A DNA stretch of 64,000 nucleotides from Xanthostigma xanthostigma (lineage: Eukaryota; Arthropoda; Insecta; Raphidioptera; Raphidiidae), in the NCBI GenBank assembly GCA_963575645.1, contig OY754466.1, positions 16,718,001 through 16,782,000 on the forward strand, in the 5' to 3' direction. Every line of letters begins with the position of its first letter. Within the stretch, counting starts at the first letter, position 1. Positions 168 through 32,510 of this stretch are shown in pieces. The translations under genes and the position numbers were made by a program. The notes below the pieces were generated by a model. That model worked only from the letters and a program-made list of their open reading frames with translations. It was not told the origin of the DNA and made no database searches.

Positions 168-320
168 CAATTAATAAAATTATCGATCAATTTTTCAGAC
201 AATATATTAACAAAAACATATATAATTAATACATTAACTTTTCGATCCGGATTTGAACCTTCTTCAGAACTGATTTAAAAAATATAAAAAATAATTAATA
301 TTTAGTTTCTAATTAGTTTC
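168..320 (-). repeat. Half copy of a palindromic repeat with a CTGANGA/GAAA hairpin motif
   Basis: On the minus strand, CTGAAGA (261-267) is followed by a decayed hairpin and then GAAAAG (238-243). The sequence on both sides matches the right half of the palindrome at 20.73-20.98 kb. The second arm is missing here. Confidence 0.6.
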
Positions 321-2800
321 TTTATAAAATTCGTTCAAAGTTATTAATATCGAAATATTGAAAAAATAATAACAAACAATTTTTATTAAGTAGTCATGGG
401 TTTAATTGTGAGTACCTACCTAAAAAGAAAGAAAAAAGTTATTTTTTTATTGGTGCCCTATTTTACCTATTTAAAGCACGCTTCAGAGTGTTTAAATCGA
501 ACTTTCAAAAACGCGCGTTTTTTAAAGTTACCATGGGAACATCAACAACTCGAGAATTTTTTGATTATTGATTTGACAGGAGTGGCATATAACGTCAAAT
601 AAAATATTACTAACAAATGCAAAACCTTTATTCAAACATTATTAAACAATTAATCTTTAATGACAAATTGCAAATTAATTTCTGTTTTTCTCATTTCCAT
701 GACAACGAAAGGTATACTGATGTCACATCACGATTTCAACCATTTTACATTATTAGTTTTTATTTCCATATTTTTGTAGTAATAATACCAGTATTTATGA
801 TTTCAGAGTGCACCAATAAAAAAAATAGCATAAAGTATTCGTGGATAACTGGTCTTTAAAACACTTGCTCTATTTCGAAAAATCACGCGTGTTTTAAAAA
901 CCTTTTTATCCACTTTAATATACTAAAAAACAAAATATTATTTCAAAATAGTATTACATATATTACTTAAATTTTCCGTATCTTATTGAGCATTGAGAGA
1001 ATTTTTATTTGATTTTATATAGGTAAGTAACTTTCCGAAATATTTCATTTAAAGAAATTAGTTTCATTATCTAAAATTCTTATATTATCCCAATTAGTTA
1101 AGAGTTCTTTAAAAAAACAATTACGGGGTCGTGTATACAAAGTGAGATAGTAATACAGTAATTCTACACCAGTTACTATGACGTATGTATGCGATTTCTG
1201 ATTGGTTAGATTCAAAAATGACGCGTGAAGGACGACAAGTACCTAGTTTTATTACGTATTTTTGAAGGTGAATAATGCGCAAAGATTTTTTTTTTTTGGA
1301 ACGTAATTTAGCGGTTTCTATTACTCAAAAATAAAGAAATATACGAAGTAAGTGAGCGTAGCCGCGGTCTCAGGCTAGTAGAAAATATTTATAAAACTTC
1401 AACGTAAGTTGTTATACTTTGAGACCGTAAATATGTACTCGCAACTAAAGTGTACCTATGTAATACATTGGGTAGGCAAGGTGGCACGTTCCACCTGTAC
1501 TACAGCTATATTTACCTACGGGATTTCTGATAAAACTATTCTCAAACGGAATGTGTTCACTTCTTGAGCTGACACCGGCGTACAAACGTAATAATATTGA
1601 CAGCCGTTTGTTTGATTTTGTTTTGTGGTCGACATGAAACTGAAAACGAAAACACATAAAATTACAACGATTTTATTGAAAATGAAAAAATAACCTTCAG
1701 GTGACAAATAACAGACTTGACAGATGCGACACGAAATGGTGTCCTTATAGAGTGTATCTGTTACGGCCTATACCCGAATTAGGTCAATGACCGAAATAAA
1801 TGCGCCAAACTAGTTTTGACCAACGAATATTGCCTAAACCCAAATCTTCTTTGCGTTTTTTAATTAACTTTTCCACATCAATGATACTATATCAAAGCGA
1901 TTTATTCTTCTGTATTGTTTAGCAGACAGAGGTTTCAATTCAGCTTTCATCAAATTTGGTTTCTCAACCTCACTTAGTGTAATAATGTAATTATGTTTAT
2001 TCAACTCATGCGCGCTATTCATGTTTTATCATGCCTAAAAACCGAACCTTAAATAGCCATTTACCGACTGGTGACAATTACTTGTCATAACTCAATGAAG
2101 ATTCCTACTAGCTCGGCCATTGTGGAGTAATGAAAATAAACGTAACTATTTTCTGAGTCGTAACGTAGGTAACAACAACTCCGTTGTTACCCATTGAGGC
2201 TTAAATTGAGAGGCCGAATGTTTTCGACATGGAGTTTATTCATAACCGGCTAACCTCATACCAAAACATTGAATCGTGCTGTTTGGTGCTGTTAGTATTG
2301 ACAGTTTTTTTATAAAGAAATAAATAGATATTTACAACATCTTATTAATAACAATAAATAAAACATGAATAACGCGCAATTGTTGAATAAAATTATGGGC
2401 GTAACTTGTAGGCTAAGTCATGACCTGTCAGCGCGATGAATGACTCAGACTACTAGTTACGCCAATAACTATTCGTCATAAAATTATGTTTCAGAAGCCA
2501 TTTTTCCCGCTTAGCCGTTTGAAAACTGTTATTCCCATACATCGACAAACGTCGAGGTCAGGTTGCCAAATAAGCATATAATTGCAATGAGTTTATAGTA
2601 TGTTATTGTGGTTTAAAAACACTATTTTTTTGTGATGTAACTACAAATTTACGGTTTTCGGATTTTCCCCTTTACTTGTGCTATAAGACATTGCTACTTG
2701 CCAAACATGATTCTAGATCAACGGGTTTTGATTCCCAAGAGTCTTGACAGACGGAAAACAAAGTGATCCTATAAAGGTTCCTTTTTTCCTTTTGAGGTAC
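320..2800. other. Non-coding stretch
   Basis: AT-rich with no convincing gene. Open frames up to 80 codons are chance. A small palindrome (GCGTAACTTGTAGGCTAAGT with its mirror) lies at 2399-2462. Confidence 0.6.
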
Positions 2801-2827
2801 GAAACCCTAATAATAAAAATGACACTG

Positions 2828-2895
2828 ACCACCGAAATCGAACCTACGACCTATAGGTACGTGGCAAGTGTTCTACCTCACCGTCAGCTTAGCTT
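2828..2895 (-). repeat. tRNA-like (SINE-type) sequence
   Basis: Minus strand has GGTGAGGTAGAACACTTGCC (A box-like) and GTAGGTTCGATTTCGG (B box-like) about 25 bases apart, the spacing of a tRNA head. No intact cloverleaf was found. Confidence 0.5.
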
Positions 2896-3060
2896 AGTGT
2901 TCTACAGCAGTTTTTTATGGTATACGGTATACGTATATTGCGACACGTTTGGTATATTTTCAATCTTAGGAATCAATTTGACCCTACCGTGTCAAACGCA
3001 GTTTTACTTCAAAAACTTTGACAACTACAAACTACTTTCCCTGATTTAATAAATACAGCG

Positions 3061-29650: not shown

Positions 29651-29765
29651 AGCAAGTATACGAAAATATACACAATATTTTTTGCACGTACTCTCCATAA
29701 AACAGTTCATTTTGACTTAATATTCAATACCTACTTGTTAGTAGAAGTTTTGTTCCAAAATATGT

Positions 29766-29957
29766 ATTGAAGGAGATTTATTTGGTTGAGGAACAATTGA
29801 AAATAAGCTTTACCAGTGTATCGCTTGTGGCCAACGTTTCGAAAAATATATTTGAGGCCCTGATGATGAAAATATATTTTTCGAAACGTTGGCCACAAGC
29901 GATACACTGGTAAATCTTATTTTCAATTGTTCCTCGACCAAATAAATCTCCTTCAAT
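29766..29957. repeat. Near-perfect 190-bp palindrome with hairpin motif
   Basis: Left arm begins TTGAAGGAGATTTATTTGG and is mirrored at the right end. The arms also share AGTGTATCGCTTGTGGCCAA. At the centre are CTGATGA (29860-29866), a GAAAA/TTTTC hairpin and GAAACG (29883-29888). Confidence 0.85.
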
Positions 29958-29959
29958 TC

Positions 29960-32510
29960 AATACCTACCTTTATTTTCAACATTTTTAACAGTTCGAATG
30001 TGAAATAAACTTCATATCTTTTAGGTTTATTTCTATATAATTATTTTAGATATCTTATATACTTATAGATAGTTTGTGTAGCACTGATGTAAGTAGTGCA
30101 CTGTTACGATTAATGCGGTGTACACCTGACTTTATACTGACAGCAGTAATGAGTTCAACGCCAGGTCAACCCTGGATGCACTGACCTGTTTAGAGCTTCG
30201 ACTGAACATTGCACCGTATCAGAGGTTTGTTCTTTTGACGCTTTTATATCTAAGGTGTAGGAAAATAATATGGCACGACCCCACTTTTTACGATTAAAAT
30301 ACACGTTACAAATAGGTTATTAAACATTTTTTTCGAGAAATGTTTGATAGCTTATTGTACAATAAAAAAATTGGATGGATTAGTAAAAGTTTCACCTTAG
30401 AAATTAGTAAAATTTACTTACACAAAAGCACAATGTAAATAAGTGTTATAAATATACATTTACATAATAAATATTTATAATATAGCTATTATGCAGTTTG
30501 TCCGATTGAGCAATAGACATAATGACAGATTCTGAAATTCAGTTCTACTATTTCCGAAAAAAACATTATTTCAGTAATAAAATAAATTTTAACGTAAATT
30601 ACTGCATTTTTATTTTTCTATTTTGAAGTAATCGCGAAAACGTTTGTGACGTCACGCCTTAGCGACAGCTACCATTAGATGTTGTATTTATGGGTGTAGA
30701 ACTGTGGTTCAGAGGAAGGTATGTAAATTTACTTAATAATATGATTTATATTAAGTATTTTCTTAAAAGTAGGTACTTAGTAGTAAAAATAGTATAGCTT
30801 TCTTTAGTTACTAGTAAACTAACCTCAAACATAATATAAGTGACATAAGTGCTATAAATTATCACAAAAAAAACAACAAATCAACAAATTAAATGATGCA
30901 GAAGTGAATTATCGCAACAAAAATTTAAGCGACACGGTGATTTACTTTAAGTGTTTATATTCTTCATGATTGCCGATGGCGTGACGTCATTCGGTATTTC
31001 AGTCAACATGGCTGATTGCAGTACAGTAAATTTTTAACATTTAACTAAACATTCAAAATAACCCCAGAAAATAACTAGAGCATAAAGAGTAAACGTGTTT
31101 CAAAGCAAGGTTAGTGGAGTAAAAGTTGCCCCGTTCCGTTGAATAGTAGTGAAAGTGTGACGTCATCAAAATTAAAAATTAAATAAAATCGTGTCAAAAC
31201 GTTTATTTTTATTATAAGAAGTTTTGTTTCGGTCGTGCGTCCCTCGACACATGACTTTTCATATATCTTTGATCACTCTGTATTTTTAAGCATAAAATGC
31301 ATATAATATAGATAGAAGAGCGTGTACCCCTGACCTAGGTCACAGACCTGTGGGAATTCCTCACGTGAAGCGCGGGCCGATTTAAATTTTAACCTGTAAC
31401 CTAGTTTACAACTCGGTGAGAGCGAGTGAGACAGACGCTATTTTGCATGCAAACTGAAATATTTATCTCCTGAATGCTATTTCCTCTTCCATTTATAAAA
31501 CGCGTTCAATATTCAAGTCTGACTTGTGACAATAATCCGTATAAATAAGTGACTACAAGCGACGTTCTTTAATGAAATATTATTGTTATTATTAAAATAT
31601 TATTTCGAATCACTGTATAGCTACCTCCAATCTCCAAAATATTTTCTGAGAAATGGTGGCAGTAAGTATCAACTGAATTGCCATTTATTATTGAAATTGA
31701 AATGCTCAGAAAACATTCAATCTTAAAACAAAACAAATAGGCTATTATACCGTTTTTTTAAAAGTGTTTTAAATAAATCCTAAAATGATAAAGAAGCACT
31801 ACAAGTTTTATAATAATATTTTATAACAGAATAGTGCCATAAAAACGACTTTTAATTTAACATTATGAATTTTCGCGCGAAAACTACTCGTGACGTCACT
31901 ATGATCATAAATAATTATTAATAAAAAAAATCGCAGGAGTGTGGATAAAAAGTTAGATTTATTTTCTGTACGACGTTTCGTCTATAGATTTAGACTTTTT
32001 CAAGTACAATAAAAAAAATTCAAAACAAATAAATCATAACGATATTGCACAGTAACCATAGTAACACTGTACAATTAAAAATATTTAAGATTGCTACGAT
32101 TATTACGTTACCAGTGAAAGTATACAAATTAGTTAAACTTTATTTATTTATTAAACGTATTTATCCTTGGTGGATTAGTATTTTCTACTTTTACGAAACC
32201 GTCTTCCATGATGCGAAATCAATAAAACACGAGATAGATGTCTATAAACGTGATAATAACTTGAAATAACTTCAAAATAACACACAGCGCAACATAAACG
32301 TAGGTAGTTTACAGACGAAGTGTCGTCACGCCAGAATCTAACAGGGCGAACAGCGTTTTAGACTTTTGAAGAACAAATTAAAAAATACAATTCTTAAAAT
32401 TGAATTATAAAATTTATAGTGCATTATTATGAATAGAAATCAACATTTCTCGTTTGCTTTTTACAAAATCTATCACGAATATGTATTATTAGATTTTTTC
32501 TTACATGGTG
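29960..32510. other. Non-coding stretch with clustered TGACGTCA sites
   Basis: AT-rich, no gene recognised. Four copies of GTGACGTCA(C/T) lie at 30646-30655, 30981-30990, 31157-31166 and 31890-31899. Confidence 0.55.
31973..32006 (-). repeat. Related hairpin motif without palindrome arms
   Basis: Minus strand reads CTTGAAAAAGTCTA, then a short loop, then TAGACGAAACGTCG. It resembles the CTGANGA-hairpin-GAAACG motif of the palindromic elements but has CTTGAAAAA instead of CTGANGA. No second arm was found. Confidence 0.35.

What the first reader, a model, noticed from the sequence alone, without database searches (positions are those of the whole stretch)
168..32006. Hammerhead-like CTGANGA-hairpin-GAAACG motif in several unrelated palindromic repeats
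Seen: the pattern CTGANGA, one extra base, a short hairpin, then GAAACG occurs at 3684-3714 (-), 3973-4003 (+), 20865-20894 (+) and 29860-29888 (+), a decayed form at 238-267 (-), and a looser form at 31973-32006 (-). Four of the repeats are palindromic but their flanks differ between families. Known: hammerhead ribozymes have a CUGANGA-stem II-GAAA core, and Penelope-like retroelements carry minimal hammerheads in their terminal repeats. Inferred: these may be remnants or non-autonomous relatives of such elements. The extra base between CUGANGA and stem II is non-canonical.
Basis: partly seen in the sequence, partly recalled or inferred. Interest (0 to 1): 0.72.

Follow-up and report, generated by a model that had tools for sequence, protein, structure and literature searches.

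The report
Penelope retroelement dyads with minimal hammerheads
The repeated motif looks like the small self-cutting RNA (a stripped-down hammerhead ribozyme) carried by Penelope-type jumping genes; the source genome holds thousands of copies, many as short back-to-back insertions, and a second version has both letters of a key base pair swapped together.

Summary
In detail: CTGANGA-N4-30-GAAACG occurs 4 times in the window (0.12 expected) and 23,208 times in the 623-Mb source genome, against 731 for the reversed pattern. The motif fits the minimal type I hammerhead of Penelope-like elements (PLEs). Stems I and II covary over 24 classes. Helix III is a self-complementary word after GAA (usually ACGT), as a dimeric ribozyme needs. 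PLE ORFs with RT and GIY-YIG domains carry the motif in this genome. The palindromes are head-to-head pLTR-like dyads; 17 of 39 have a target-site duplication of 11 bp or more, usually with an extra tail on one arm, a published PLE pattern (PMC3846280). The extra base is A or U in 23 of 24 classes; a viroid hammerhead tolerates both there (PMC3705267). The looser copy at 31968-32007 belongs to a second large class, C3-G8 replaced by U3-A8 (12,943 matches vs 2,481 control); the single change C3U shows no excess (2,820 vs 3,072). That swap in nature was reported in 2011 (PMC3088659). At least 56 of 74 family-B copies run through an uncut ribozyme site. Cleavage itself is untested, and Rfam's hammerhead models do not match.

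The parts
3597..4143 (.). Family C PLE-type dyad: 13-bp duplicated flank word ACGAAACACTTAT at 3597-3609 and 4131-4143, inverted arms 3607-3776 and 3911-4080, extra tail of about 50 nt on the right arm only
   Evidence: Inverted repeat I4, 91% complementary; duplicated word and arm ends
3678..3718 (-). Minimal hammerhead of the left arm of family C
   Evidence: 40.3 bits, E 9.6e-9 with model R1; its sister copy is in the model
3969..4009 (+). Minimal hammerhead of the right arm of family C; predicted cleavage between 4005 and 4006 (ACGTT^A); stem I TCT/AGA; stem II weak (3 of its first 4 pairs)
   Evidence: 45.7 bits (sequence is in the model); pairs; alone it does not fold better than shuffles
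20731..20984 (.). Family A palindromic copy: left arm about 20731-20819, right arm from 20898; the left arm lacks the ribozyme
   Evidence: Inverted repeats I14 and I21; arm alignment score 139; no target-site duplication found (longest shared flank word 5)
20861..20900 (+). Minimal hammerhead, family A: extra A, stem II GATCC/GGATC, ACGTC^A; predicted cleavage between 20896 and 20897; stem I poor
   Evidence: 46.5 bits (sequence is in the model); pairs; stem II in the predicted fold
29723..29968 (.). Family B PLE-type dyad: 12-bp duplicated flank word TTCAATACCTAC at 29723-29734 and 29957-29968, inverted arms 29763-29853 and 29870-29960, extra tail of about 28 nt on the left arm
   Evidence: Inverted repeat I6, 97% complementary; duplicated word and gaps
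29856..29894 (+). Minimal hammerhead, family B: stem I GGCC/GGCC, extra U (which makes an AUG with A9 and G10.1), stem II GAAAA/UUUUC, helix III word ACGU, predicted cleavage between 29890 and 29891
   Evidence: 47 bits, E 1.3e-10 (sequence is in the model); pairs of the same family (rows L018, L020, L021)
232..271 (-). Decayed family A hammerhead (GAAAAG in place of GAAACG), no inverted partner found
   Evidence: 39.8 bits, E 1.3e-8 with R1, exact sequence not in the model but its family is; no partner arm
31968..32007 (-). U3-A8 hammerhead: stem I GTAC/GTAC, core UUGAAAA, extra A, stem II GUCUA/UAGAC, ACGUC^G
   Evidence: 28.9 bits, E 1.4e-5 with R1, no U3-A8 sequence in the model; predicted fold is exactly stems I and II, though 20 of 200 shuffles fold as well; class counts

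Best explanation
The motifs are minimal, dimer-type type I hammerheads of Penelope-like retrotransposons. In the window they sit in three short head-to-head pLTR-like dyads (two with target-site duplications) and two single copies. Shown by sequence: the order stem I, CUGANGA, one extra A/U, stem II, GAA, self-complementary helix III word, H17, stem I; presence of the same motif in RT plus GIY-YIG elements; arms that diverge from the centre; duplicated target words; an extra 18-52 nt tail on one arm in 15 of 39 palindromic copies. Inferred: a PLE enzyme cuts the target with a stagger, primes on both ends of the break from two start sites (about 60-90 nt 3' of the ribozyme cut, and some 20-50 nt further), and copies the same kind of transcript toward its 5' end twice; the two cDNAs are joined head to head. 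The template is usually not cut at the ribozyme site. On tandem pLTR-ORF-pLTR transcripts two ribozymes would pair through the self-complementary word and cut; in a dyad transcript the long hairpin ties up stem II and the GAAACG strand. Cleavage is not shown here.
For: Counts. Covariation in 24 classes: stem II pair 2 formed in 19 (shuffled mean 11.9, max 18), pair 4 in 23 (12.8, max 19); stem I pair 1 in 20 (14.1, max 18). PLE link: 37 GIY-YIG matches, 150 of 521 candidates scored; RVT_1 plus GIY-YIG in one frame in L045 and L039; model R1 hits at E up to 1 in 24 of 27 GIY-YIG loci searched, among them L031, L034 and L039, which were not in the model. Dyads: 17 (-,+), 1 (+,+), 0 (+,-) among neighbours within 600 b in 100 listed places; 21 (-,+) and no other kind in 100 tail places. 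Duplicated flank word of 11 bp or more in 17 of 39 palindromic copies (0.3 expected), mode 13 bp, one arm abutting it in 15 of the 17. Arms of one dyad: mean identity 0.962 within vs 0.807 between (13 dyads, 66 arms). Published parallels, passages seen: head-to-head inverted pLTRs, a 31-bp tail on one, 8-10 bp TSDs (PMC3846280); a PLE protein that cleaves and extends both target strands from two adjacent start sites, with insertion unaffected by ribozyme mutants (PMC11167929).
Against: No Rfam hammerhead family reached its cut-off: none in the whole window, best 12.7 bits against 48.5 for 29831-29892. The other stem II registers are mostly at shuffled values, but pair 4 with two extra bases (19 of 24, mean 12.5) and pair 5 with none (16, mean 11.2) are also raised. 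22 of 39 palindromic copies show no duplicated flank word of 11 bp, and L005 and L098 have one that does not abut either arm. In 7 of 13 dyads an arm from another insertion is as similar as the partner arm or more so. Wider windows give exceptions to (-,+): 4 (+,+) and 1 (+,-) within 1,500 b, 1 (-,-) within 2,000 b. R1 is weak (16 bits, E 0.073) in the L041-L058 family. Self-priming, the model of PMC3846280, gives the same head-to-head shape. Family A stem I in the window is poor. No autonomous element was found for window families A, B or C. The Anolis PLE hammerhead cut only when protein was added (PMC11167929).
Confidence: 0.88

Rival explanations
1. The dyads arise by self-priming: one cDNA or antisense transcript folds back and primes its own complement, giving a palindrome, instead of priming on both target strands.
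For: Proposed for PLEs from palindromic junctions (PMC3846280, passages). Six of the 20 loci have short centres of 11-16 nt (L011, L013, L020, L021, L025, L026).
Against: The two arms end at different 3' points in 15 of the 17 copies with duplicated flanks, which fold-back copying of one cDNA does not simply predict; some dyads have centres of hundreds of bases (L016; L162-L164).
Confidence: 0.3
2. The palindromes are terminal inverted repeats of DNA transposons (MITEs) in which a hammerhead-like word is a coincidence.
For: Inverted repeats with duplicated flanks; high copy number.
Against: Ribozyme stems covary across families; the same kind of motif sits in RT plus GIY-YIG elements; 27 of 50 copies examined had no inverted partner; the two ends of an element often differ by a tail.
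Confidence: 0.03
3. The motifs are retrozymes, small tandem circular-RNA elements with canonical type I hammerheads.
For: Non-autonomous and short; retrozymes are reported in insects and may be moved by PLEs (PMC7229834, PMC7761336; passages). One locus has three direct copies (L175).
Against: Close neighbours are head-to-head, not tandem, and helix III has no stem-loop of its own.
Confidence: 0.05
4. The U3-A8 class is decay of the C3-G8 class rather than a functional variant.
For: C to T and G to A are common changes; the pattern count is inflated by an unrelated repeat (18 of 100 listed places, counted by eye). The control count for C3 with A8 could not be obtained.
Against: The single change C3U shows no excess (2,820 vs 3,072 control), and its 30 of 100 stem-II-positive places mostly carry stem words of the C3-G8 families by eye, while U3-A8 has its own stem families, dyads and some duplicated flanks and sits in its own PLE clade (L031, L034, decayed L033).
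Confidence: 0.06

Closest known systems
Minimal type I hammerheads of Penelope-like elements (Cervera and de la Pena 2014; Lunse, Weinberg and Breaker 2017; neither text held, known here through passages of PMC7761336, PMC6155905 and PMC11167929)
   Same: Little or no helix III, in pLTRs of PLEs, dispersed by thousands in animal genomes, thought to act as dimers
   Different: Here a U3-A8 class makes up perhaps a fifth of the copies (crude estimate). Whether the published ones share the extra base was not seen; PMC10085705 (passages) says known hammerhead alignments have no more than one or two extra nucleotides between CUGAnGA and the stems
Inverted pLTR structures of Penelope in Adineta vaga (PMC3846280, passages)
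   Same: Head-to-head pLTRs, tail on one arm, short target-site duplication
   Different: Here many are a few hundred bases long and in very high copy; duplicated word mode 13 bp rather than 8-10
U3-A8 hammerheads of Perreault et al. 2011 (PMC3088659, passages and section 8 read)
   Same: Joint change of the C3-G8 core pair to U3-A8 in nature; such pairs active in vitro
   Different: There several examples; here a large genomic class in at least four stem families, tied to PLEs, with an extra base and a dimer-type helix III
CChMVd plus-strand hammerhead (PMC3705267, passages)
   Same: Extra A between A9 and G10.1; U there speeds cleavage, C and G harm it
   Different: A viroid; here the extra base is A or U in 23 of 24 C3-G8 classes, with C in some U3-A8 copies

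Membership tests
Type I hammerhead ribozyme | Core CUGANGA ... GAA with A15.1-U16.1 and cleavable H17 | tested here: met
   ACGT followed by T, C or A in 22 of 24 classes, the other 2 read ACGA. The U3-A8 copies depart at C3 and G8 together
Type I hammerhead ribozyme | Stem II with covariation | tested here: met
   register with one extra base; two single pairs of other registers are also raised
Type I hammerhead ribozyme | Stem I with covariation | tested here: met
   First three pairs formed in 20, 17 and 17 of 24 classes (shuffled means 14.1, 10.8, 10.5); further pairs not supported; family A (20861-20900) poor
Type I hammerhead ribozyme | Helix III | tested here: inconclusive
   Present only as a self-complementary word usable in a dimer: ACGT, and ACTAGT or ATGTACAT in two PLE families (read by eye); no intramolecular helix III; dimer formation not testable here
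Type I hammerhead ribozyme | Match to an Rfam hammerhead model at its cut-off | tested here: not met
   no match above cut-off; best 12.7 bits vs 48.5. The models expect a full helix III (recalled), which PLE hammerheads lack
Type I hammerhead ribozyme | Self-cleavage | not testable with these tools
   Needs transcripts
Penelope-like element | RT and GIY-YIG ORF in the element | tested here: inconclusive
   Present in elements that carry the motif (L045, L039, L035), absent from the window copies; no autonomous partner of window families A-C was found
Penelope-like element | pLTRs in direct or head-to-head inverted arrangement | tested here: met
Penelope-like element | Short tail on one arm and a target-site duplication | tested here: met
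   17 of 39 palindromic copies have a duplicated word of 11 bp or more, 15 of those with one arm abutting and a tail on the other; 22 of 39 do not. In the window 2 of 3 palindromes
Retrozyme | Tandem unit repeats with canonical hammerheads | tested here: not met
   Close neighbours are (-,+); exceptions: (+,+) pairs and the triple in L175
Terminal-inverted-repeat DNA transposon | Symmetric inverted ends | tested here: not met
   In 15 of the 17 copies with duplicated flanks the ends differ by a tail
Terminal-inverted-repeat DNA transposon | Cognate transposase | not tested
   No transposase search was made

The most novel reading that the evidence does not exclude
Two PLE lineages in one genome run on alternative core base pairs of the hammerhead (C3-G8 and U3-A8), each with its own swarm of short non-autonomous dyads, and because insertions copy RNA that is uncut at the ribozyme site, selection keeps the ribozyme for something other than making the template, for example unit-length cutting of tandem transcripts or binding of the PLE protein near its start site for reverse transcription.
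Probability: 0.35. Interest if true: 0.66.

Novelty: new member of a known kind. Interest (0 to 1): 0.5.

Why it matters
The Rfam models did not report these ribozymes, so a common genome feature can go unannotated. The genome is a natural laboratory for an open question, what PLE hammerheads are for (called a mystery in PMC7761336, passages). It offers thousands of insertions in which cutting of the template can be read off, two core-pair versions side by side, and helix III words of different length that predict dimer cleavage and can be tested in a tube.

Tried and rejected
Genomic footprint of cleavage: if cut RNA were the usual template, 5' ends should pile up at the cleavage site. Of 50 copies without a second motif nearby (48 fetched, 2 in the window), 23 had an inverted partner arm; its matched start ranged from -72 (the limit of the search) to +76, with 2 within 1 nt of the site. 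Of 74 tail-selected family-B copies, 56 carry the whole motif; of the other 18, at least 6 (L104, L107, L121, L123+, L143, L144) have an internal deletion or indel by eye rather than an end, and 3 end within 2 nt of the site. No pile-up. One family only was tested this way, and some truncations may be later deletions of palindrome centres.

Rfam: the whole window at gathering and at E up to 5, and two short stretches at E up to 10, gave no hammerhead above cut-off.

Link of the CTGAAGAAGTTGT hammerhead to the PLE of L029: rejected, because alignment shows it in a block inserted into that PLE's 3' region, which resumes afterwards; the related loci L031, L033 and L034 have a U3-A8 hammerhead there. 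L030's hammerhead lies on the strand opposite to its GIY-YIG frame and was not used as a link.

BLAST self-alignment missed the known window palindromes and was replaced by local alignment of arms.

Not answered: the count for C3 with A8 (CTGANAA) stayed busy in all 15 attempts, so that control is missing. Counts for G3-C8 and A3-U8 were planned and not run.

Papers: Cervera 2014, Lunse 2017, Arkhipova 2017 and De la Pena and Flores 2001 are not held. Searches for hammerhead ribozyme plus Penelope plus Lepidoptera, and for hammerhead plus Penelope plus butterfly, found no paper; that concerns the held library only. A search with C3U and G8A gave three papers, of which one was looked into (PMC7151607) and did not bear on the swap.

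
Full report
Check of the observation. The pattern CTGANGA-N4-30-GAAACG is present at the four exact places given, and 100 dinucleotide shuffles give 0.12 on average with none reaching four. The decayed copy at 240-267 (-) has GAAA but not GAAACG. The window lies in a 623,323,696-base genome of 28 contigs, unnamed. There the pattern occurs 11,528 + 11,680 = 23,208 times against 359 + 372 = 731 for the reversed pattern. 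The four exact copies sit in three palindromes: 3607-4080 (two copies, one per arm), 20731-20984 and 29763-29960. No inverted partner was found for the copies at 238 and 31973.

The fold. From 42 distinct motif rows in loci L001-L058 and the window I kept one row per set of stem letters, 24 classes, and compared pairing with shuffled partners (rows with very short or long hairpins were left out by the script, and row L002, which looks like a chance match, was kept). In the register with one extra base after CUGANGA, stem II pair 1 forms in 24 of 24 (shuffled mean 22.1, so uninformative), pair 2 in 19 (11.9, max 18), pair 3 in 18 (14.5, max 20), pair 4 in 23 (12.8, max 19) and pair 5 in 16 (11.4, max 18), with A-T, T-A, G-C, C-G and G-T types at pair 2. 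Other registers are mostly at shuffled values, but pair 4 with two extra bases (19, mean 12.5) and pair 5 with none (16, mean 11.2) are also raised. Stem I is supported at its first three pairs (20, 17 and 17 of 24; means 14.1, 10.8, 10.5) and not beyond. In 22 of 24 classes GAA is followed by ACGT and then T, C or A; the other two read ACGA. ACGT is its own reverse complement, so two molecules could form helix III together. Two PLE families show other self-complementary words there, ACTAGT in L039 and ATGTACAT in L041/L045 (palindromes read by eye). Amphibian hammerheads with weak helix III cleave well as dimers, and PLE ones are thought to (passages of PMC6155905, PMC7761336 and PMC7229834).

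The extra base. It is A in 14, T in 9 and C in 1 of 24 classes. A viroid hammerhead has an extra A at the same place with a moderate loss of rate; U there raised the rate 3-4 fold, while C and G were harmful (passage of PMC3705267). So the extra base does not argue against activity. Where it is T, A9-U-G10.1 reads AUG. The PLE of Anolis starts its ORF at the start of stem II, 26 bp before the cut site (PMC11167929, passages), and in family B the AUG lies 25 nt before the predicted cut. In the window copy of family B that frame closes after 15 codons (by eye), so it codes for nothing long.

Link to Penelope-like elements. A GIY-YIG search of the genome gave 37 matches, with 150 of 521 candidates scored. 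RVT_1 and GIY-YIG lie in one stop-free frame in L045 (605 aa within the locus) and L039 (578 aa), and in two frames of L035. A covariance model R1 built from 18 typed motif words was run over 27 of the 30 GIY-YIG loci, leaving out L040, L047 and L056, which overlap others. With E up to 1 it hit 24 of 27; L032, L037 and L044 had none. Scores: L029 51.3 bits, L038 42.7, L036 42.1, L035 35.6, L030 and L031 27.8, L039 25.3, L034 22.7; 16 bits (E 0.073) in 13 loci of the family around L045; 15.7, 15.6 and 14.1 in L033, L052 and L048, the last doubtful. Words of the L029, L035 and L036/L038 types are in the model and match by construction; L031, L034, L039 and L045 are not. E-values of R1 are rough. 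In L045/L046 the hammerhead lies between the end of one ORF copy and the start of the next.

Insertion structure. Among neighbours within 600 bases in the 100 places listed, 17 are (-,+), 1 is (+,+) and none is (+,-); within 1,500 bases there are 19, 4 and 1. For family B, a tail pattern that starts 8 nt after the predicted cut occurs 2,337 times (control 0); its listed neighbours within 600 bases are 21 (-,+) and no other kind, and within 2,000 bases 25 (-,+) and 1 (-,-). Of 71 copies examined for arms (68 fetched loci, chosen partly because they held two motifs, and 3 in the window), 39 passed an arm score of 80. In 17 of these 39 the flanks share a word of 11 bp or more, against 0.3 expected from shuffled partners; the mode of these is 13 bp (10 copies). 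In 15 of the 17 one arm abuts the word within 4 nt and the other ends 18-52 nt short of it; L005 and L098 do not fit. In the window, 3597-4143 and 29723-29968 show this and 20731-20984 does not. Head-to-head inverted pLTRs, a 31-bp tail on one of them and 8-10 bp duplications are described for PLEs (PMC3846280, passages), and inverted pLTRs with short 3' extensions are listed as PLE peculiarities in a curation guide (PMC8969392, passages). Arms of one dyad tend to come from one subfamily: 0.962 mean identity within against 0.807 between (13 dyads), though for 7 of the 13 some other arm in the sample is at least as close as the partner.

How it likely works. PLE protein from Anolis cleaves and extends both target strands and starts at two adjacent sites in its RNA (PMC11167929). 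Two such extensions facing each other would leave head-to-head copies with unequal 3' ends and a duplicated target, as seen. Self-priming (PMC3846280) is the main rival; it explains short centres but not simply the unequal ends. The joining step is inferred. In a dyad transcript the arms form a hairpin of -141 kcal/mol that ties up stem II and the GAAACG strand and leaves CUGAUGA in the 16-nt loop (window 29763-29960), so cleavage should be hindered there.

Is the inserted RNA cut? Of 74 tail-selected family-B copies with enough upstream sequence, 56 carry the whole motif (at most 6 of 31 mismatches), so they were copied through the cut site; of the other 18 at least 6 are internal deletions or indels by eye, and 3 end within 2 nt of the cut. 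Arms of one dyad count separately. This agrees with the in vitro finding that ribozyme mutants do not affect insertion and with the lack of RNA-seq reads ending at the cut in Anolis; there the ribozyme cut only with protein added (PMC11167929).

The second class. The looser window copy has a predicted fold that is exactly stems I and II (20 of 200 shuffles fold as well) but reads UUGAAAA in place of CUGANGA: C3 to U and G8 to A. Genome-wide, TTGANAA-N8-26-GAAACG has 12,943 matches against 2,481 reversed; 18 of the 100 listed are one unrelated repeat, counted by eye. TTGANGA, the single change C3U, has 2,820 against 3,072. Of 100 listed places each, 44 doubles and 30 singles have stem II; the singles carry, on inspection, mostly the stem words of C3-G8 families, as decay would give. 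Scaling 44% gives roughly 5,700 U3-A8 copies, a crude figure from the first 4.6 Mb of one contig. Twenty regions with such places were fetched, seven of them chosen as (-,+) dyads. Many have stems I and II intact, with stem I words such as GTAC/GTAC, GCT/AGC and CCT/AGG; L176-L178 are poor. Flank words of 12-13 bp occur in three of the seven dyads (L162, L163, L164) and in L166, and not in L159, L160, L161 or L165 (no shuffled control was run for these). The PLE clade of L031, L033 and L034 has a U3-A8 hammerhead, decayed in L033, about 525-550 nt after the GIY-YIG match on the same strand. C3 and G8 pair in the active fold, and their joint change to U3-A8 was reported in nature in several examples, with activity known in vitro, in 2011 (PMC3088659, section 8). 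The kind of change is therefore known. Its scale and its tie to one PLE clade were not seen in the texts read, which do not include the two main papers on PLE hammerheads.

Verdict. A known kind of element, PLE pLTR-like dyads with minimal hammerheads, in very high copy, with two core-pair versions. The host was not identified.

Noticed in passing
39970-40767 (+): Part of a rhodopsin-type G-protein-coupled receptor gene (Pfam 7tm_1, E 7.5e-32).
   Followed up: partly
58624-61377: Large nested palindrome (arms of 396, 219, 78 and 45 nt, 96-98% complementary) with no hammerhead hit by model R1; perhaps another mobile element.
   Followed up: no
46985-47904 and 48545-49079: Two further palindromes; the second gives sub-threshold miRNA-precursor matches in Rfam on both strands, as a long hairpin would.
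   Followed up: no
46225-46611 (-): Fragment resembling the zinc-binding domain next to reverse transcriptases (zf-RVT, 25.1 bits, below the cut-off of 27.5).
   Followed up: no
L175 (G000:C1:3844706-3845436): Three U3-A8 hammerheads in the same direction, about 100 and 200 nt apart, a tandem arrangement unlike the usual dyads and reminiscent of retrozymes.
   Followed up: no
10360-10396 (+): Weak model hit (17.7 bits, E 0.017), perhaps a decayed hammerhead or chance.
   Followed up: no
L140/L141 and L148/L149: Family-B dyads whose tails lie about 1.76 kb apart, with near-identical arms; the centres may hold internal PLE sequence and were not fetched.
   Followed up: no
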